A stretch of 64,000 nt of DNA. It comes from Beverwykella pulmonaria. Its lineage: Eukaryota; Ascomycota; Dothideomycetes; Pleosporales; Melanommataceae. The notes under the pieces were generated by a model. It saw only the letters and a program-made list of their open reading frames with translations. It had not been told where the DNA came from and made no database searches. Below are positions 84 through 62,216 of the stretch, piece by piece. How positions within the stretch are numbered: the first letter of the stretch is position 1; each line of letters begins with the position of its first letter. The stretch spans positions 193,905 to 257,904 of the forward strand of contig BCHH01000004.1 in assembly GCA_001599595.1 (NCBI GenBank), read 5' to 3'. The translations under genes and the position numbers were made by a program.

Positions 84-3000
84 ATGAAATTATCCACTCT
101 TTTTTTCCAATCGTCATTCATTTTTCCCGCTTTGATTGTTCATGCCGTCGGTCAAGATTTCACAGTCCAAGCAGAGAAGCTGGTAGAATGGAACAGCTGC
201 ACCGATAAACAGAAGCAAGAGGTTAGAGATGCGTGGGATGAAGCCATAGACATTGCATATGTTTCTAGTGGCAAGCTCGAATGGACTTTTCAAGCAGCAA
301 GAGAATTTCTTGGAAATGAGAAAAAGAACGCACCTTATCAAGACACTATCAAAGGTAGAATAAATTTCCCAGAAAATATATGTTGGGCAATTCTGACGGT
401 TAAATAGCTGTTCTCAACAACGCACACACATTTAAACGATCATATTGGTGGAATCCCTCGAATTGGAAAGCTTGGAAAACAGCCATACGCTGCGACGACT
501 TCGACGGGACTTGTAAAAAGTATCCAACCGCTGCAGCATACACCATTAACCCAGGAAAGAGAGATGACCCAAAAAAGAAGGAAGTGACGAAAGACACGAT
601 TGTTATCTGCCCAAAAGTATGGAAGGATAAGCCAACATGTGCAGCAGCTCTCGCAGAATTTGGAAGGCACACAAATCCTTCTAACAACCTTAATGACTTC
701 CAGTGCAGAGGTAAGCTCACTTTTTATGTTGACAATTACTTTCCTATACTAAGTAACGTGCTAATTGGGGATTATCAATAGGTTATGTTATATTGCATGA
801 GCTGTTTCACTTAGATTCTTTATCAAATATATCAAATGGTGGTCACATCAAGGACATTGATATCCGCTACCAGTCTGGCTTCGATCCTGTAGTAAGGTGG
901 TATCCGGCATATACACCAACCCGAACAAAGGTTCTGGCTCTTTGGCCAAATGATGATTTGGGAAAATACATTGTCACAAACGGTAAGGCAGTACTTGTTT
1001 AACAACGACCACCGAGACGCAACTTGCTAATTGGATCATAGCTGATAACCTGGCTCAATACTCGCTCGCACGGTGGGTACAGATAAACCAGAGAATGTAA
1101 GTGCTGATGAATCGTGTTCTTGATCAAGATTACAGTTCTTATAAATATCTAGATATCCTCATCAGCCAAGGCCGGACGGCGTCCCTGACACTACTTATAC
1201 CCCGAGATTCTTTATCGAAAGCGACGATCCCGTCACCATAGACCCTCCTGCGCAGACTGGTATGCCAACATCAACCGAGCCACCCCCTGATCAAATTCTT
1301 GACTGCAACAACAAGGGGCAAATGGAATGGGCCACCGCGCCTTCAATATCTCAACCATTCGCTCAGAGCACAATCGAAAAATTCTGCAACAACATCAACA
1401 GCAAGAACATTGACGGGTTTGACGTGCCAGATGCCACTGGGACAAAGCTCTTTCTAGGAGCCCTCGCTCAAACTGACGATGCTTCGTGTACTGTGTTGAG
1501 AAAGAGAGCGGTATCACCAACCGAATGTAAAGAACAGCTTGGCAAAGTTATCAATGGTTGTGATACAAGCTCAATGAGTAGGAAGTTTGGCGGAATAAGT
1601 GCCACCAAATGCACGGCCTGGATCGTGCACATCAGCGGCCCTCGGGCCGCTGTAAAACAACCAGATGCACCGTGGTCATGTTCTCTATTGGTTGAGAATG
1701 ATTCCTTGGGCTGCGCTTGCACGGATGGTAAAGTGTACCCTATTGTTGATGAAGCTTGTCCCTATGACAAGGCGCCTACGGACCCTCCATCCTCGACACC
1801 AGGACCAGATCCTCGACCATCAATACCTGTTATACTGCCATCAATGCCTGTTGTAATGCCATTGCCGTCCTCAATATCGACTCCTCAAACAACACCGCCT
1901 GCTTCGGCTGCAGGCCAGCAAATTGCGGTGGCGTCATACATTCACCCCCTCGCTGACTCGGCCGCCTGGACTCGGTTGATTGGATACCCAAAGGACAAGG
2001 TGAGCATTTTGGTCGCAAACATCGTCAATGGCCCGGACAATGCGGTGAATGACGATTGGAAGAAGGTCATCGCCGACGCGTCTAGCAAAGGAAAGACGAT
2101 CATTGGCTACGTGCGGACTGGATACCTAGGCGTGAGCGATAAACACTTCAAGACGCGGCTTGGATCCACCGACCTAGCCGACTGGGTCTCCCAGATCGAG
2201 CGAGACGTTGACACGTGGTACCAGCTGTACCCCGGTGACATTGGCGGCATCTTCTTCGACGAGGGCTGGAACGATTGTGGGCCGAACAACATGTATTCGG
2301 AGCTGTACCGTTATATCAACGAGAACACCAAGCGCAAATACCCCAACGCCTTCACCGTGCTCAACCCGGGAGCGACTATGCCCAAGTGCTTTGAGAACAG
2401 CGCCGATACGTTAGTGACATTCGAGAGCAGCTATGACACGTATACGAACAACTACAAGCCAAATGACTGGGCTCCAACTGACCCGCGCAAGATCTGGCAC
2501 ATCATATACAATGTCCCGAAGGCCGAGGTGGCCCGGATCGCTGTGCTAGCGAGCCAGCGCGGCGCCGGCCTGATCGAAATCACTGACGACATCATGTCTA
2601 ATCCGTACGACAATCTACCTGACGATGCATACATGCAGGAGCAAATGAACGCCGTCAGTGGCGGCAGTCCATGGGTTACTGGTCCTTTATCATCCCCTGC
2701 AGGTGGCGGACTCTCAGTCTCGACACCGGGCGGGCTGACAGTTACTACGTCCGAGTACACCTCTGTCAGCCTGAGCTGGTCAGGGGTGGCAAACGCCGCT
2801 GGGTACCAGGTTTATCTCGACGGCACGGCAGCTCTCAGTCTCACGGCAGCGATGACCCGGGTCACCATCGGCAACCTCATTCCAGGAACCTCCAAGTATA
2901 CCTTCGAGGTGACTGCTCTGGGGGATGATGGCAGCGAGTCCGGAAAGTCGAATTTGGTGTCGTCTGGCACCAAGAACCCACCTAACCCGGGCAGGAACGT

Positions 3001-3445
3001 GTTCAACGTCAAAGTGTCGACATCGGCCGCGTCGACCACCTATCAGGCAGACATTGTGGTTCCGTACGCCTTCCTCCGCATTTATGTCTGGGACAGCGAC
3101 CAATATTGTGATTTTGACAAGTCTCCGGGATGGCCGGTCAACTATGCTGTTGCCAACTACGTTTGCACCCACTACATGGTTGAGGGAGAGACGCTGTACC
3201 AATTCACTGGCAAGGTCCCGAGCGGCACCAAGAACGTCCCGTGGTCGTGGGCAACGATGGACGGTAGTGTTCAGGTCGAACAGAATGGCTATACCTACAA
3301 GTGGACCATTCCCATCGGTACTTCGACCACGGACACTAGCAAGTTTGTGATTCAGGCCGAAGGCTACGGACCGAAGACGAACGTCTTCTCGCCGTGCCCA
3401 ACTTGGAGTGGTGGCCCAGACGGCACCGGTCGATACTGCGCCTAG
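84..3445 (+). CDS. Secreted metallopeptidase-like / spherulin-4 / Fn3 multidomain protein
   Basis: Five exons (84-354, 408-710, 782-982, 1042-1096, 1153-3445) join in phase into a 1,040-aa protein. The start at 84 gives a hydrophobic signal peptide (MKLSTLFFQ...). Residues 25-277 resemble deuterolysin-like zincins: HELFH at 197-201 is an HExxH zinc site, and NADN at 258-261 sits where M35-like fungal proteins carry a conserved Asn-Ala-Asp. A middle cysteine-containing region and a Pro/Ser linker lead to a spherulin-4-type TIM-barrel domain (about 533-777), an Fn3 domain (about 803-881) and an unrecognised C-terminal domain (about 893-1040). I infer an extracellular protein acting on host or cell-wall protein and polysaccharide; the substrate is unknown. 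All introns are 53-71 nt with good GT-AG ends, so the fusion is not an annotation artefact caused by missing stops. Two adjacent genes fused by a wrong intron call is the main alternative, but exon 5 has no own start with a signal peptide. Confidence 0.75.
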
Positions 3446-37050: not shown

Positions 37051-37548
37051 GGCTTGCGCAGAGCAGTCTAGCCCTACATCACTTACGCTGTGGCGTGCAG
37101 TGTGCCATTTTGAAGACGTCCATAAAGGGTGGACATCGCTTCACTATTGTTCGTTTAGGTAGCTCAATTGGGAATGGATCGACATCTCCAGTCTCCACAG
37201 ATACCAGGCCGAGAAACGGGCCATGCCGTTTCCCTCAATACCTGTGTATGTAGATGCTGACTGGCGACCTGAGTAGCTGATGTTGGCTAAGATTTAATAT
37301 GAAAAGGCAGATGGCTTGTGCATATGTGCAACCCACAGCCCTCACCGCGAGGAGGCACCAGCCAGCCACTAGTCAATGGCTTCTATCGGTGAATATAAAG
37401 AAAATATGTTGCCCAACATCTGGTGTGATGTTTGCAGTTCTCAGCCTTTGGTTACTGATTTTTGGCCATCAGCAGCCCGACTCTGGTGTATAGACCAAAA
37501 TATCCTTTCTTTTCTGACCACGCCTTTCCATTGAATTTGGTCGCCAAC

Positions 37549-39883
37549 ATGGCTCCACTCGACAGAGTTTTGTCCTGCATCACCTATGTGCTAAGCTACT
37601 TCACATTTTCCCCTCTCAGGGGATATGAACAAGTTCCAATCCTCCCATCTCTTGTACCTTCCCACCAAGCTCCGCCCAAGTATCCGAGCTTCAAGCCTCC
37701 TGGCGGTCGCGTCGGCGACGGCGAAGGCAAGAACTTCAAATGCGAATATCCATCGCTCGTCGGATATAAAAGTTGCTCTACTCCCGAAAATCGAACTTGC
37801 TGGCTGAGGAACGACAAGACTGGACATGAGTATTCACTCTACACAGACTATGAAGATACCAATGAGACGCCGTTTGGTATTCATCGTCAGTACGAAATAG
37901 ACGTCACCGACCAATGGCTTAACCCGGATGGTGTAAATTTTACTGAAGGCAAGCTATTCAACAACATGTATCCTGGTCCTTGGATTGAGGGTTGTTGGGG
38001 AGACGTATGGGTTTCAATCGCTAAAGATCTGTTTTCAGTGACTAACATTGATTTAGAATATTACAGTCATCGTCCACAACAAGCTGAAGCATAATGGTAC
38101 AAGCGTACACTGGCACGGGATCCGGCAGTGGTTAACTATGCACATGGACGGCGTGAATGGTGTCACGCAATGCCCAATTGCTCCAGGTGACAAATTCAAC
38201 TATACCTTCAGAGCTATGCAATACGGGAGTGCATGGTACCATAGCCACTACTCAGTTCAGTATGCCGATGGTGCCCTTGGGCCTCTTGTGAGTGATGGTT
38301 CCCGTATATACCTACTTTCGCTCATACTTTTCATAGACGTTACATGGACCGGCATCTGAGCCATATGATGAAGCCAAAACTCCATTACTGATGACCGATT
38401 GGGGTGAGTCTTTTCCTTGGATAGGATTTTCCCTCTTAGATCTCGGAACTAAGTCTGCGATATAGGTCACAATAGTGCATTCCAGGCGATGTATCGTCCC
38501 CCAGGCCTTGTCAAGCCAAGCATCCTGCTCAACGGGCATGGTAATATCACTCGAATGAACAACACCTGGAAACCAGACCCAGGCCTCGATATCCCTCTTC
38601 CGTATACCATACACTTCAACGGGTCTGTAGTTTCTGTTGACGGTGGCAAGACAAGGAAGAAGCGTTACTTGATGCGGATCATCAACACTGCCTTCGATTC
38701 CACTTTCATATTCTCCATTGACAACCACAAGCTCCAAGTTGTGGGGGCAGACTTTGTACCGATCAAAAGTTACACCACCGAATCAATCCTTGTCGGCATT
38801 GGGCAGCGTTACCACGTTGTTATCGAAGCTAATGATACTCTACCGGAGACCAACGGGAACTACTGGATTCGCACATATAAGGCCAACTGTTTTAACTTCG
38901 ACCCCACAAAGGTTAGCAAAGGCTACGAAAAGACGGGCATTCTACGCTACACCGAAAACTCCAGCATACCCCCGATCTCCCAGCCATGGGAAAATATTCC
39001 CACCAAATGTTCCGATGAGGATTACAAGAACCTAGTACCGATCCGGAAGTGGACTGTAGGCGCTGCTGCTAATCTAAAGCCTGGCGAGCATGTAGGCCAG
39101 AACTTCAGCGTCACAGCTGGCGACGCTGCAGGGACCATGTTTCCCTTTGCTATTTTTTCCATGGGTGGTGATGATACCCCCGACGAGTTCCTTCCGCTGC
39201 GAGTAGATTATGCAAATCCCACGTTTTTGAACCTCAACAACACAGGGCGGTGGAATCCTCAGTGGGTAGTAGTTCCTGAGAATTATAAAAATAATGATTG
39301 GGTAAATATATTTTTTTTAGTTTTTTTCATCGCGCTTAGAGTCACCTCACTAAATTTATCAAAGGTCTACATGGTCATCAAGGGCAAGAAGATCGACGGG
39401 AAAAATGGGGCACACCCAGTAAGTCCTAACCGCAAGTTAGACCCACATCCTGAACAGAATACTCACATATTACAGATCCACTTACATGGCCATGACTTCG
39501 CCATCCTCCAGCAGGTAGAACAAAAGAGGTTCCCCGACGGCCTCGAACTCAAGCTCGACAACCCTCCTCGTCGTGATGTGGTCCTCCTTCCCACCAACGG
39601 CTACGTCGTCATCGCCTTCAAGACCGACAACCCTGGCGCATGGCTCGTCCATTGTCACATTGCGGACCATGCAAGTATGGGTTTGGCTATGCAAGTCATG
39701 GAGAGGCAACAAGATGCTGCAAACATCTGGCCTAGAATTAATGTTTCGCATGCTCTTAATGTGACAAAGGAGGGATGCATTAAGTGGAATGAATGGTGGA
39801 GTAATTGTAAGAATTGGTGGCCGGGCGATGGAAGTAGCTGCAGGTTGGGTGAGCTTGAAGCGTCGCCAGATTCAGGCATATAA
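37549..39883 (+). CDS. Laccase-like multicopper oxidase
   Basis: Six exons (37549-38004, 38057-38287, 38337-38403, 38466-39301, 39365-39418, 39476-39883) give 683 aa. All introns are 49-63 nt with clean signals; the first uses the acceptor at 38055-38056, which alone keeps the frame. The four copper-binding blocks are present: HWHG at 170-173, WYHSHYS at 212-218, HLHGHDF at 550-556 and [11 protein letters not shown] from 607. A Cys-flanked N-terminal extension (about 1-110) precedes the first cupredoxin domain. The family oxidises phenols or metal ions with reduction of O2 to water, usually outside the cell. The start ([15 protein letters not shown]) gives a weakly hydrophobic signal or anchor. 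Possible roles are pigment or lignin-derived phenol oxidation; the substrate cannot be read from sequence. Confidence 0.92.
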
Positions 39884-55763: not shown

Positions 55764-57698
55764 ATGGATCGAAAGCCGAATTCGACCTTCAACCCGGCGG
55801 CGGTGTCTTTCAACCCCGCTGCGGCGGCCTTCAAGCCAACTGCTCCTGCTTTCACACCGACTGGGACCAAGTTACCAGTCCAGGTGCCTACATCCCCAGC
55901 GGGCAGTGCAGTGATCGCGAGATCCTCTCCCACCACGCCGGTTGCTATTATCGAACGTTTGTCTGCCTTCACAACGCTGGGCAAGTAGTCTAGTGCTTAC
56001 ATTTATGCTGTAGACACTCCTGTCCCCTTCTGGAATGGGAACCGAACACAATTTGGGGACCTGTTTCCTTCTCCACAGACGCTAAAGAAACCACCGAGTA
56101 AATTGTTGCCATTCTACTTGAACAACATAGAGCTCATAGTAGTATAGAAGGACCTGTCGAAAAGCCAGCCGCACCTGAGCAGTTGTCCAAATCGGTCACT
56201 CCCTCGACACCCCTGTGGTTCGCTGGGCTCGGCCTCAACGGCGAAACTGAAACTCACAGCGCGAACGGCGGACGTGAGGTTCCATCGGGGCGGGACCCAA
56301 CGCGCCCAATCATGGCTCCGGCTGGGAGCTGGGCGTTCGAGCGTCCACATGAAGATGATCTTCAAACACTCATGGGTGTACATAACAAAATTTCATCTCT
56401 TTCATACAAGTCGCCTGCTACTTCAAATGGTAAGTCAATGGCGAATGGTGCAGTCACGGGCCAAGGCATTCACTTCAATGAAGAGGGATGGGAAAAGTCG
56501 GGATCCCCCACCTACCCGACTGGCAAAGACACTGGGGCTGAGAGCAAGATAAAGTACGTCAGTGAGCTCGGCCTGCAGCAGACTCCTGCGCTCATTGTCT
56601 ATTGTAAGTTCTCCGAGAACACAGATGCCAACAGATGCTAACAAAAGCACAGCGAATGGACCTGCCATTCCCATACTGAAAAATATACCGAAAATCCCAG
56701 CTGGCCATGACGCAGCCTCCCAACCAGCCACGACTCCTCGTCCCCCAGCACTCATTCACTCGCGAGCTGAGACCGGAGCCATATTCGACACTGGCTACAA
56801 CCACCCCAGTGTGATTGATCCTCACCGCCCCGGTCCCCAAGTGCGATCTGGCATCTACCACTGTCCCACGGGGATACTCGACTGCCACCGATACAATCCC
56901 GAGCTGTATGGCGCCCAGATCATGTGTCCAACCACTGCGAACATGGCTCATCGTGGTGGTGGAAAATCTCGTGGACACGTAAGAAAGCCCAAAATAACCC
57001 GCTTAAAACGCACTGATCAGGGCCCGATGCCGTCAGAGGCTGACATATACCCCGATGATGCACGGGTTGACCATGGACCTCCCGACTTCACATACGAGTT
57101 CGATTGCGGAATTCGTGCCGATGCTGGAAACTTGGAGTTTGATGCAGAAGTCGAGGATATAAAATACGCAGCACGCGCGAGCGGTGCCGCTGCTGATGAC
57201 GAGGAGGAAGTGTGTTATCAAGAGGAGATGGTGCGTCGGAACGCCACTGAGAATAAGGAAGCTCTTCAGAGAGAGGAGATAGCAAGCTGGAACACCACTG
57301 CACTCAAAGACACACAACATCAAGATGAATTAGGCCAGCACGAGAATGAGGACATCCCCAGCCCCTTGGAACCCTCAACCAGTGTCTCCACCACCTTCCA
57401 GCTCATTCTTCCCCCAGAACCAACCATCTACCCGGCCGACGACGAACGCAATCTACTCCCTTCGCCGCCACCAACCACAATTGGGAATCGTCCCACGACC
57501 AGCTCACGCATGAGGTGCGATGCGCGTCCAATGTCTCCAGGCCAAATGGATGGGACTAGGTATGGTTTGAGCTTTTGGGGTATTGGACTCGGTGACCCGT
57601 GGTGTATGCCGAAGGTAAAGCAAGGGACGAAGTTCAGAGTTCGTTCTAAGGATCATGAGGGGTGGGGTGAGCAGGCTTGGGGGGAGGGGAAGAATTGA
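55764..57698 (+). CDS. Hypothetical protein with N-terminal PAM2-like repeats
   Basis: Four exons (55764-55956, 56014-56097, 56148-56603, 56653-57698) give 592 aa; introns are 49-57 nt and all phases agree. The start MDRKPN leads directly into an overlapping triple repeat, STFNPAAVSFNPAAAAFKP and continuation. It fits the PAM2 pattern (S.LNP.A..F.P) that binds the MLLE domain of poly(A)-binding protein, with Phe instead of Leu. The rest is disordered and Pro/Ser-rich. It has a repeated-looking short block (HTPVPFWNGN, STPLWFAGLGLNG), an acidic Glu-rich stretch (about 430-500) and a Trp/Gly-rich C-terminus (GLSFWGIGLGDPW). No enzyme domain is visible. An mRNA-related role would follow from the PAM2 reading, which is inference. 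Confidence 0.65.
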
Positions 57699-58125
57699 CA
57701 GGGAGAGTAGAGGGACAAGGGAAAGAGCATGGTCATAACGAGGGCGTATCGATGACGAAATGAGGAAACGAGGACGTAGGAGCTGTAGGGCGCTGTCGCT
57801 ATTACTACGCTTGGTTTCGGCTTTGGTGCCTGAGCTACTCATCGCCACTAGTTATGAAGCCAAGTTATAGCCTAGAAAAATACGGAATTTGCTAGGTCAG
57901 CCATTTTGGCAGTAGGGCATCTTTTCGTTAAATGACATCTGCTGTGGCCTATTAACCCACTACTGTGATTCAGGAACGTGATTGTAAAATTGTGGCGGGT
58001 TTACGAAGGAGAAATTAGGTGGCTTCAGAGCTGTAAGCGAACTTTGTACGACAACGCAAAGGACCTCCTCGAAATTCATATGTAAAATTTATATGTCTAC
58101 ACACCGAAGCGTAGTGTGCTTACTT
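57699..58125. other. 3'-3' intergenic gap
   Basis: About 430 bp between convergent genes; no feature seen. Confidence 0.55.
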
Positions 58126-59817
58126 CTACTCATCTTCCTCCACCATCGCTCTTTGTTTCCCCATCGCTATCCTTCCCGCATCCTCCTTCCCCCTCTCAAC
58201 ATCCAGAACCCACAACAATGGGCCCGGCAACACTGCCAAAATCGCCAAAAATATAAATGCTGGCCTAATGGTACCGGCTCGGTCCACAATCCACCCTACA
58301 AGTGCAGGCCCAAACGCACTACTTCCCTTATCCGTAACCGCATACAGAGCGAAAAAAGCCGCCTCGCTCCCTTCCGGTATCAACGGCGCATAAACCGACC
58401 TAGCATAACTACCAATGCCGGCCATGATGAAGCCGTGGATTGCGCCCAGCGGGTAGATTTCCCAGGGTTGTTGGAGACCGCCGACTTGGATGCGGCGGAG
58501 GAAGGGGATGTAGCCTAGGAGGCCATACAGGGGCACGATTTCCATTAGGAAAGTGCAATAGAGGAGCACGGTCTTAGACGAGAGGGAGAAGTAGCCCGCG
58601 ATCCGTGGCCAGGCGAAGGCGCCGACGATGCCGAAGCTAATCGAAGTTATGGAGAGCAGGGCGATGGCTATGGTGCCCATTTGCAGTTCTGTGCGCGCGA
58701 AGAGGACGGCGGTGCCGGTTATGGTTGCGATGGCATCGCTGAGGAGGAACCATGCCAAGAGAAAAATTGTGACTTGGCGAAGGCGGAGGGCGCGTTTGAG
58801 GGTCGTCCAGAAAGAGGATAGTGAGAAGATTGTGTAGAAGACGAATGATCCTTTTTGGTTGAGGGGGTGTTTGGATTGGGTGGGGAGAGGAGGACCAGGT
58901 CGGGACCGGAGATAGAGGATTGTGGGGATGCTAAAGGTAGCCCACCATATACCAACAAAGAGAAGGATGAAGCGTATTGGAAGACTGGGGTTGTTGGTAG
59001 CTATTGGTGTTTTTGTGAAGACGACGAGGATGCCAATGCTCAACACTTCAGCGGTCACGGCTGCAATGTACCCGAGTCCGAGACCAGTGGAGGATAGTTT
59101 TGCTGATCGCACGAGGTCGCGGGTGAGCTTCTCGAGGTCTGAACGGCGAGTAGTGATTGCTTCCGGGTTGAGAGCTTCGAGCTCGAAGTCCGATGATCCG
59201 TCATCGAGCTTTTCGTCCTGATAGTTGGATACGAGTAATGGGAGGAAGGCGTTGAGGAGAGTGAAGGAACAGCCCAGGCATGTGACGCCAATGATAACAA
59301 GAATCGGCGCGATATAGAAGACGCTAGGAGAGATGAAGATGAAGAGAGCGCTGGCGACCGAGCCCGAGTATGCAAAAGTTAACAGCATTTTCTTGCGATA
59401 CGGCCCTGTGAAGTTCAGTGACCCACTTTTTAACATTCAAATGGTAGCATACCGTAGTCGGCAAACGAACTAACGCATATCAGCGTGATGGCCTGCACAA
59501 CAACCGCAGCAGAAACCGTATACATCGCAAACGACGCTGTCGTGACATCTGCACCTAGAAAACTGACAACACACTGTTCTTTCAGATCATCTTCTGCTTG
59601 ATTTAGCCGTCTCGTCGGATCTCCATCGCTTCCGGGCCCAGACGTGTGGTCAACACATGGCTTTAACCTATCTGAGAAGAAGACGCCTCGTTCTCGCGCG
59701 AGCTGTTCGAGTAGGACTGGCAGGAATGCGCCTTTCTGTGTTATTAGGTTTTCTTTTTTTTCACTGGACAAGAGAAGAGATAGATGCTTGCTTACCAACC
59801 GCAACCACGGCGAACAC
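58126..59817 (-). CDS. ATG22: Atg22-like vacuolar transporter, body of the gene (start exon displaced)
   Basis: Exons 59817-59796 (partial), 59731-59453 and 59405-58126 run on the minus strand with introns of 64 and 47 nt. Family blocks are clear: AVGAFLPVLLEQLARERGVF across the first intron, then GVTCLGCSFTLLNAFLPLL, LLFVGIWWATFSIPT, FLLSDAIATITGTAVLFAR and YGLLGYIPFLRR. PLGAIHGFIMAGIGSYARS and PEGSEAAFFALYAVTDKGSS follow. About twelve membrane spans are expected. Atg22 exports amino acids from the vacuole after autophagy. Upstream of 59817 the frame meets TGA at 59835-59833 and has no ATG. The missing 40 residues are encoded next to it on the opposite strand. As assembled the gene cannot make a normal N-terminus. 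Confidence 0.9.
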
Positions 59818-59982
59818 CACCACCGTCAGCCGTCACAGCAGCATCTCTCAAACAACATCGGCATGTCTTTTGACGAGGTGGTAAGACCACGCCGATCCAA
59901 TAGGTACGATGGCGAAGATACGAGCGCAACAGCCAGATGGGAGATCTATGGCTGGTACTCGTACGCCATTGCCGCAGAGGTG
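59818..59982 (+). other. ATG22: Inverted first exon of ATG22
   Basis: On the plus strand ATG at 59863 opens 40 codons ending in RWEIYGWYSYAIAAEV at 59982. This is the Atg22 N-terminal signature, which should be followed directly by FAVVAVGAFLPV. That continuation is on the minus strand from 59814. If 59818-59982 is turned round, the codons join in frame (total 1,698 coding nt, 565 aa). The inverted piece ends in CAC on the left and GTG on the right, so the exact breakpoints are ambiguous by about 3 bp. Its first 45 bp are the natural 5' leader. Confidence 0.88.
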
Positions 59983-60824
59983 GATGTCGTCGAGAGGCTA
60001 GTCTGTTTTCAGAGCTAGCTTGTTTCCGTTGGGAATTAGTCAGATGCTAAAGACAACTACAGCGAGCAACTCCATCCCTCCATGTCGTTTATCGTCCACA
60101 GCTCATCAAGTCAAATGAATCATCATCGCCAGCCTTTGTCATCCCCGTAATGGGACAATTCCGCATCATCTTCTCTTGGCAGACAAGGTGAACAGCTTTG
60201 TACTGAGCCTATTATTCTTGTCGCACTGAAATCTCGAAATTGGGAGAGGTAAACCACCAAAGCAAACAAAATACATCACGGGTTATCCTTTCTTCGAATC
60301 TCAGTGGATTCAAATGTAGAGAGCCGCCCGGATGCGTGTTCGATTTGTCGCTGTATGAAAAGTCATACAAATTCCACAGCCGCGTCCTAACCCCTCTCAA
60401 CCGCTATTAGCCACTCTCACTGTGACATGCTCTTTCAAGCGCTGTATCTACGTATCGAAGATAGCGTGGGTGAAGGAAATGACAGTGAGCTATACTTTGG
60501 CTACGGCATGAATCAAAGCCTCGTTCGATTGCTCGTGCAAATATTGAGTTAATCGTGTGTTTCGAAATTCCAGTCACGCCAGTAATCTCATCATTCGGGT
60601 TACCAGCCGCCTTTAGAGCAACAACTAAGGCACGAGTAGCAATATCATGAGGAGCTATTGTACAAGAGGTATAGAATTGAGTTGAGAACCGATGCTGAAA
60701 AAGTGAGGTTGAGCAAAGAACATGTCAGCTCAAAGCAACACCTAAATCAAGAATAGAGCGTCTACCCCTGTCTTGCCAAGGTGGGCAAGAACTTTTGAAA
60801 GGCACCTCCGTATAGCGTAACTCA
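59983..60824. other. Intergenic, ATG22 promoter side
   Basis: About 840 bp without a gene. Confidence 0.5.
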
Positions 60825-62216
60825 TTACAACCCCGGAGGCAACGAAGTCGCCCGCCCGCCATACCGTCCCTCCTTAATCCTCCCATCCGTTCCAAGCCCG
60901 ACCAACCCCTCCAACCTCTCACGCGCATCATCATACACCCTGAACGCCTCGCTCTCCACACTCTCTATTATGTCATCCGCTATCACCCCCGCACTCTCCC
61001 TCATCTCGTCTAATTTAGCCGAGCATTCCCGATTCAGCTCCGAGATGCCATCTTCCTTAACCATGATGACGTCGAGCTTATGGTCGTCCAATTCCTCGTG
61101 GAATTCGATTTCGGCCATTTTGCGAACATCCGCAGCGTGCTCGAGCGCGTCGTCAAACATTTCCTGGAAGAGGTCTTTCGTGTGGCTAGTGAGGAAGGTT
61201 CTCATGGTGTTGTGAAGCGTTGGCATAGGGGTCGGTTTCCGACCCGGGCTCGGGGGGGGCGACAGCGATGACGGGGGTATGGAAAACATATTGTGAAGCA
61301 TGCCTGGCAATACGGTCTGTAGCGCGTCAGGGAGCAGCGTCTCGACTGCGCTCTTCACCACGTCTTGGAAATCGGGCGCGCTGACGGGAGGCGAAGACAG
61401 GGGTCTAGCGTCAGGTGTCGACACCGTCAGAGTGGCCGGCTTAGTTGGCGAAGGTGAGAAAACGGGCTCGGGGGGAAAATGCACGCGTTTTCGGGCCAGG
61501 GGCTCAGATGAGCTTGTCGCAGCTGTACGGTGTCTGTGAGTAATGTGCGAAAGGACCTACCTAAATATAATAAACTCACACTGTCTGTGGCGTTCATTAG
61601 TCGCGCCTGGGTATAGGGGTGGAGGCGCCTCAGGTGCGGCATCGTCGCCGAGACTAAACACCGTCCAGTCTGTGTTCCTGTATGGGTTTGTCGAACGCTT
61701 AGAATGAAAACCGGCTAGCCTTTCTGGGTGGCTGACAAGACTCTCAAACTGTGCATGTTTATCGTGGTGTAACCAGTTATAGTCGAACAGAATATGCACG
61801 CTTCTTGCTTTGGCAAGGTCCACGAGCTGACAGAAGCGAGCATCAAAGTCATGATTGGGTCTTATACTTCCAGAAGAGGGAGGACAACGGACGGTGCAAG
61901 ATTTCTTCATAACAAGGGACAGCGTCTTCAGATCGTGTTTCGAATTCCGCGCAATCTCGTCCAGCCTGTCTTGTGGAACAGATACAGTTGCAGGTTGAAG
62001 CGAGGCTGCGCCAGGCACCATGTTGTCAGGATCGTAAAGCAGGCTGATGTATTGTTCATCGTCAAAACCATGAATGGGAATTGAGAATTGTAGGCGTATA
62101 GAAGCTTTTTCGAGAGCCTCAGCGTACTTGATGATCAGGAAGCATGTGGACAGAGTACCAGGTGTGAGATAAGCCAAGGCGGGGGTACCTTCTTTGCGTA
62201 GAAGTTTGTGTGACAT
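60825..62216 (-). CDS. Hypothetical protein, two exons
   Basis: Exons 62216-61580 and 61522-60825 with a 57-nt intron (donor gtgagt, acceptor gtacag) give 444 aa in phase. The N-terminal half (about 1-180) is globular-looking: GTPALAYLTPGTLSTCFLII, IPIHGFDDEQYISLLYDP, VHILFDYNWLHHDKHAQF. The C-terminal half starts with a Pro/Ser-rich stretch (VHFPPEPVFSPSPTKPATL) and ends in a helical Glu/Asp-rich segment (FQEMFDDALEHAADVRKMAE ... DDIIESVESEAFRVYDDARE). No signal peptide or membrane span. I do not recognise the family. The tandem duplication at 62356-62711 lies in its promoter. Confidence 0.65.

What the first reader, a model, noticed from the sequence alone, without database searches (positions are those of the whole stretch)
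59796..59982. Micro-inversion of the ATG22 start exon
The minus-strand Atg22 gene lacks its first 40 codons, and those codons stand immediately upstream on the plus strand with the correct ATG. Inverting about 165 bp (59818-59982) rejoins ...AIAAEV to FAVVAV in frame and gives a 565-aa coding total divisible by three. As assembled, the minus frame meets a stop at 59835-59833 before any ATG. Short CAC/GTG repeats at the breakpoints fit a microhomology event. Either autophagic amino-acid export is impaired in this strain, or the assembly has flipped a small segment. A reversible switch is a third, speculative option.
Basis: partly seen in the sequence, partly recalled or inferred. Interest (0 to 1): 0.9.

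Follow-up and report, generated by a model that had tools for sequence, protein, structure and literature searches.

The report
Fungal gene with flipped starting segment
In this fungal genome a piece of about 160 base pairs that holds the start of one copy of a vacuole transporter gene lies backwards, so the gene as assembled has no proper start; it is probably a recent, uncommon but known kind of mutation that disables one of two related genes.

Summary
The minus-strand gene at 58126-59814 is an Atg22-1 transporter (PF11700). Its first 40 codons lie on the plus strand at 59863-59982. Matched separately to relatives, the plus piece aligns with the N-terminus of Trematosphaeria Atg22-1 (30 of 43 identical, E 5e-18) and, weakly, Pfam positions 1-20; the minus pieces match 24-98 and 98-481. 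The flipped core is 59819-59978 (160 bp), ending in a 4-nt inverted repeat, CACC/GGTG. The break lies inside exon 1; 19 nt of that exon stay in place. Frames and both introns are intact, and one copy was found in the 45.6-Mb assembly. By their protein models, 48 of 55 NCBI-named relatives among the best 120 hits have the start exon in line; 7 models lack it.

Best reading: a recent microhomology-mediated micro-inversion that removes the start from ATG22-1, leaving a second gene, ATG22-2, with a normal start. Assembly artefact is less likely but only reads can exclude it. A reversible switch has no support; impaired autophagy is not shown. A worn transposon relic lies about 520 bp upstream. New member of a known kind of mutation; modest interest.

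The parts
59863..59982 (+). First 40 codons of ATG22-1 (ATG to ...AIAAEV), lying on the opposite strand to the rest of the gene
   Evidence: Translation; BLASTP to P0002 E 5e-18 and P0001 E 2e-13; PF11700 positions 1-20 (E 0.045, below cut-off)
59819..59978 (.). Unambiguous flipped core, 160 bp; outer limit 59815-59982
   Evidence: register analysis; protein register of relatives
59819..59862 (+). Presumed 5' leader, flipped together with the codons (inferred; no relative DNA or RNA held)
   Evidence: Position only
59815..59818 (.). Left arm of the 4-nt inverted microhomology (CACC)
59979..59982 (.). Right arm of the 4-nt inverted microhomology (GGTG)
59833..59835 (-). TGA that closes the FAVVAV frame upstream on the minus strand; only non-AUG codons (CGG CTG ACG GTG GTG GTG) lie between it and TTC 59814
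59796..59814 (-). Remaining 19 nt of exon 1 (FAVVAV and first base of the next codon), in place
59732..59795 (-). Intron 1, 64 nt, GTAAGC...AAAG
59453..59731 (-). Exon 2, 279 nt
   Evidence: ORF 59430-59825 matches PF11700 24-98, E 4.4e-20 and P0001 72/89
59406..59452 (-). Intron 2, 47 nt, GTATGC...CACAG
58126..59405 (-). Exon 3 with stop, 1280 nt
   Evidence: ORF 58126-59436 matches PF11700 98-481, E 1.6e-123; 80% identical to Pleomassaria siparia Atg22-1 over 95%
60505..60813 (-). Worn relic of a repeated element with a homeodomain-like (HTH_23, below cut-off) reading frame and terminal inverted repeats in two longer copies; a neighbour, not at the breakpoints

Best explanation
A recent micro-inversion in this strain or species. 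A break or replication fault inside exon 1 of ATG22-1 was repaired with the help of the 4-nt inverted repeat CACC/GGTG, so that a 160-bp stretch (presumed 5' leader plus 40 codons) was copied or rejoined in the opposite orientation. The promoter side and the remaining exons kept their orientation, so a minus-strand transcript would carry antisense start-exon sequence, a TGA ahead of the remaining frame, and no usable in-frame ATG until exon 2; ATG22-1 should be null or nearly so. ATG22-2 on another contig keeps a normal start. Shown: the orientation, the ends (within 4 nt, by the protein register), the open frames, the single copy found, the paralogue. Inferred: that the DNA of the strain really has this order, the repair route, the loss of function and the recent date.
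For: Both pieces match relatives separately and abut at AEV|FAVV with no residue missing. By their protein models 48 of 55 NCBI-named relatives among the best 120 of 1531 hits carry the start exon in line, so the collinear order is ancestral. One copy of 59780-60010 found in the assembly, so not an inverted duplication. 4-nt inverted microhomology, reached by 1.7% of 200,000 random registers in the window. All frames and GT-AG introns intact. Inverted repeats of 4-8 nt flank about half of 59 definite human-chimpanzee microinversions, for which microhomology-mediated break-induced replication is proposed (PMC8755829, abstract and Discussion). The window has no N and contig C4 is 3.24 Mb.
Against: No reads, no second isolate and no relative's DNA were available, so an assembly fault is not excluded; the perfect state of the gene fits an artefact as well as a recent event. 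The human-chimpanzee events were 17-33 nt, far shorter. Other registers near the ends have 5-nt matches because of the CACCACCACC tract, so the exact ends are not proven. The last 26 residues of the flipped piece are relatively the least conserved of 47 sequences (mean residual -0.10), which could mean relaxed constraint, but sister Pleomassaria siparia ranks fourth lowest (-0.074).
Confidence: 0.73

Rival explanations
1. Assembly artefact: the strain has the collinear gene and the assembler or a gap-filling step placed a small piece backwards.
For: The gene is otherwise perfectly preserved: every frame is open and both introns are intact, as expected if it still works. No raw data were seen, and how the assembly was made is unknown.
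Against: No N in the window. None of the 11 inverted pairs of 8 nt or more in 59600-60200 sits at both ends. Of 3 inverted pairs of 16 nt or more in 57800-62200 none sits at the ends; one imperfect 19-nt pair (84%) lies on either side but more than 1 kb away (58620-58638 and 61632-61650). The longest match at the ends is 4-5 nt, too short for an assembly graph to flip through (my judgement).
Confidence: 0.22
2. The gene still makes a protein: translation starts at a non-AUG codon (CTG 59829 or ACG 59826) just before FAVVAV and gives an Atg22 without its first 40 residues, starting inside the first membrane helix.
For: The codons between TGA and TTC read R-L-T-V-V-V, mostly hydrophobic, so a membrane segment could survive (inference; no membrane prediction was run).
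Against: It would lack the W-x4-[IV]-AAE stretch seen in the relatives listed and Pfam positions 1-20. Twelve minus-strand ATGs lie between 60200 and 59829, four of them in the flipped segment (59969, 59864, 59858, 59844), which would disturb scanning if they are in the transcript. No strict splice donor offers a new start exon joined to the natural acceptor of intron 1 (0 found; 7 with any GT), and no AG acceptor lies between TGA and TTC.
Confidence: 0.04
3. A reversible DNA switch that turns ATG22-1 on and off.
For: The ends are clean and the coding pieces are intact.
Against: A 4-5 nt repeat only at the ends. No recombinase or invertase family among 22 translated stretches scanned with Pfam, which cover 16 of the 28 window ORFs of 180 aa or more, so the window was not searched completely. 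One orientation in the assembly.
Confidence: 0.01

Closest known systems
Microinversions between human and chimpanzee (Potapova et al. 2022, PMC8755829; abstract and Discussion read)
   Same: Clean reversal of a short segment with short inverted repeats (4-8 nt in about half of them) at the ends
   Different: Those were 17-33 nt; this is about 160 bp and cuts a coding exon in a fungus
Drosophila melanogaster / pseudoobscura microinversions (PMC1779558; passages and the confirmation section read)
   Same: Small inversions at genes; that study checked three by PCR and sequencing
   Different: None of the 143 overlapped an exon of the host gene (7 overlapped an exon of a nested or overlapping gene); this one cuts a coding exon of its host gene
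Mesosynteny of Dothideomycetes (Hane et al. 2011, PMC3219968; abstract read)
   Same: Filamentous ascomycetes, most strikingly Dothideomycetes; could be explained by frequent chromosomal inversions
   Different: Concerns gene order along chromosomes, not a segment within one exon; any link is speculation
Atg22 proteins of filamentous fungi (PMC9959203 and PMC6562804, abstracts read)
   Same: Protein family; more than one copy per genome
   Different: Those are working genes that were deleted in the laboratory; here one copy has its start reversed as assembled

Membership tests
Atg22 family (PF11700) | Profile match over the domain | tested here: met
   Minus pieces 413.4 and 72.3 bits against a cut-off of 24.1; plus piece 12.9 bits, below the cut-off alone but at the missing positions 1-20
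Atg22 family (PF11700) | Vacuolar location and nutrient efflux | not testable with these tools
   Known from yeast; taken from the PMC9959203 abstract
Working Atg22 gene | Start codon in line with the remaining exons | tested here: not met
   TGA 59835-59833 before any ATG; in line in 48 of 55 named relatives by their protein models. The locus is a disrupted member as assembled
Microinversion | Segment is the reverse complement of the ancestral segment in place, without a second copy | tested here: met
   at protein level only, no relative DNA held
Microinversion | Short inverted repeat at the ends | tested here: met
   4 nt, 1.7% of random registers
Microinversion | Present in the organism's DNA (reads or PCR) | not testable with these tools
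   No reads held
Invertible DNA switch | Recombinase sites as inverted repeats at both ends | tested here: not met
   4-5 nt only
Invertible DNA switch | Both orientations present | tested here: inconclusive
   One orientation in the assembly; reads not available

The most novel reading that the evidence does not exclude
The flip is real and segregates in the population or flips back, so that strains differ in ATG22-1; or the flipped locus still makes an N-terminally shortened Atg22 from a non-AUG start, a new protein form created in one step by a micro-inversion.
Probability: 0.06. Interest if true: 0.6.

Novelty: new member of a known kind. Interest (0 to 1): 0.32.

Why it matters
If real, it is an unusually clean example of a coding exon cut by an inversion of about 160 bp with a 4-nt repeat at its ends, probably in a group of fungi (Dothideomycetes) for which frequent larger inversions have been proposed. 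It is also a reminder that a truncated Atg22 gene model can hide a rearrangement: 7 of 55 named relatives have models without the start exon and could be checked in the same way. For the fungus the effect is probably small to moderate, because a second Atg22 gene exists (inference).

Tried and rejected
Considered and rejected: inverted duplication (one copy found); alternative minus-strand start exon joined to the natural acceptor of intron 1 (0 with strict donors, 7 with any GT; a first attempt failed through a coordinate fault of mine); a structured RNA at the locus (no Rfam match at gathering threshold in 57500-61000); a chance reading frame. Pfam scans of other frames across the segment gave nothing at E 0.01 (59602-60018 +, 59792-60046 -, 59567-59884 +); the first of these contains the plus piece, whose match (E 0.045) is too weak for that threshold.

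Decay test: of the 120 listed hits, 52 have 540 aa or more; 46 of these with the AEVF-like motif were compared with the window, and 6 (P0040, P0061, P0065, P0078, P0095, P0107) were dropped for lack of the motif. Result inconclusive, as told under evidence against.

Folding of 59780-60020 as DNA is stronger than all of 200 shuffles (z -2.84), from local hairpins; the left arm CACC is unpaired in that fold, so it does not support a simple hairpin between the two arms.

No DNA of relatives: the viral collection gave none. The other collections hold prokaryotes, phages and plasmids by their description and were not searched for fungal DNA. Literature searches listed 8, 15 of 104, 1, 9 and 6 papers; by title and start of abstract none of these listed concerned a coding-exon microinversion in a fungus. 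The library holds open-licence papers only, so this is no proof of absence.

Full report
What is there. The window lies in a 45.6-Mb assembly of 31 contigs (G000:C4:193905-257904). On the minus strand at 58126-59814 are three pieces of an Atg22 gene: the last 19 nt of exon 1 (59814-59796), exon 2 (59731-59453) and exon 3 (59405-58126), separated by introns of 64 and 47 nt with GT-AG ends. The ORFs holding exon 2 and exon 3 match PF11700 at positions 24-98 and 98-481 (E 4.4e-20 and 1.6e-123). The nearest protein listed is Atg22-1 of Pleomassaria siparia, 80% identical over 95% of the exon-3 ORF, so the fungus is probably a member of the Pleosporales (inference from the names in the hit list); no near-identical protein was listed.

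The missing start. In the frame of the 19-nt remnant the minus strand reads back through GTG GTG GTG ACG CTG CGG to TGA at 59835-59833 without an ATG. On the plus strand 59863-59982 encodes 40 residues beginning with ATG. These align with the N-terminus of Trematosphaeria pertusa Atg22-1 (30 of 43 identical over residues 1-43 of the ORF, E 5e-18) and with P. siparia (20 of 30, E 2e-13), and match PF11700 positions 1-20 weakly (E 0.045). In relatives these residues are followed directly by FAVV or a near variant, which is where the minus-strand remnant begins. Among the 120 best of 1531 hits, 55 carry an NCBI name (my count): 46 contain the start exon followed by the AEVF-like junction, 2 (Bipolaris, P0078 and P0095) contain it with a differently modelled junction, and 7 models lack it. 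None of the other 65, mostly shorter unnamed metagenome ORFs, has the motif. These are protein models; the DNA of the relatives was not seen.

The ends. In the register that fits the protein of relatives, the reversed segment ends in CACC (59815-59818) and GGTG (59979-59982), a 4-nt inverted repeat; 1.7% of 200,000 random registers in the window do as well. The core is thus 160 bp and the outer limit 168 bp. Other registers in the CACCACCACC tract give 5 nt; they fit the relatives' protein less well by my reading. No longer inverted repeat sits at the ends. The breakpoint lies inside exon 1, not at a splice site.

Copies. The 231 bp around the segment were found once in the assembly. PF11700 gives a second gene on C1 (577.7 bits), 48% identical to the exon-3 ORF over the main stretch. 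Its start exon is in normal order on the same strand and open for 80 codons, and its last exon follows in frame after an intron; the TAG that one search reports there is the end of that intron, by my reading. Its ORF is 84% identical to a P. siparia protein over 88%. A weak match with two stops lies on C21 (23.6 bits alone, 24.1 with its neighbours).

Surroundings. Upstream, 60505-60813 is a shortened copy of a repeated element: it matches copies on C1, C2 and C6 over about 280-300 bp at 82-84%, on C5 over 229 bp at 84% and on C7 over 177 bp at 81%, and its end matches further places. Two longer copies of about 1 kb have terminal inverted repeats of roughly 80 bp (L011 on C1, L012 on C6), and a frame in the window copy has a homeodomain-like match just below its cut-off (22.6 against 24.6 bits). 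The stretch 59983-60520 between it and the flipped segment matched only itself. The relic is about 520 bp from the right breakpoint, and nothing ties it to the flip.

Mechanism. The 4-nt inverted repeat and the loss-free left junction fit microhomology-mediated break-induced replication or template switching, as discussed for microinversions with short repeats (PMC8755829, abstract and Discussion read). That paper doubts template switching for repeats of 3-4 nt and favours the break-repair route; its events were 17-33 nt, so the extension to 160 bp is mine. The DNA strand folds better than its shuffles (z -2.84), but the arms do not pair with each other.

Age and function. The frames and introns are intact, which points to a recent event or to an artefact. 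The comparison of the last 26 residues of the flipped piece with the rest of the protein puts the window lowest of 47 in relative conservation, with its sister P. siparia fourth lowest, so it does not decide. As assembled ATG22-1 lacks a start and should not make the normal protein. The effect on the cell is unknown: in Beauveria bassiana four Atg22-like proteins exist and their ablation did not block autophagy, although they contribute to starvation response and virulence (PMC9959203 abstract), while in Fusarium oxysporum deletion of atg22 affected growth, an autophagy stain and pathogenicity (PMC6562804 abstract).

Verdict. In Drosophila none of 143 microinversions overlapped an exon of the host gene, though 7 overlapped an exon of a nested or overlapping gene (PMC1779558, passages read), so the case looks uncommon, but it is one disabled member of a small gene family in one assembly: a new member of a known kind.

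Noticed in passing
60505-60813: Shortened relic of a repeated element (HTH_23-like frame below cut-off; two longer copies of about 1 kb with roughly 80-bp terminal inverted repeats on C1 and C6) between ATG22-1 and the next ORF.
   Followed up: partly
L009 (G000:C21:40823-41065): Weak extra PF11700 match with two stops (23.6 bits alone), possibly an old Atg22-like remnant.
   Followed up: no
37459-39883: Multicopper oxidase (laccase-like): Cu-oxidase and Cu-oxidase_2 domains in the ORF at 38453-39883; the ORF at 37459-38094 had no Pfam match at E 0.001.
   Followed up: no
1145-3445: 766-aa ORF with Spherulin4 and fibronectin type III domains.
   Followed up: no
P0045, P0090, P0094, P0101, P0108, P0115, P0119 (proteins): Seven NCBI-named Atg22 models lack the start exon; Paraphaeosphaeria sporulosa has both a short (P0094) and a full (P0097) model under one name, so gene-calling differences are likely.
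   Followed up: no
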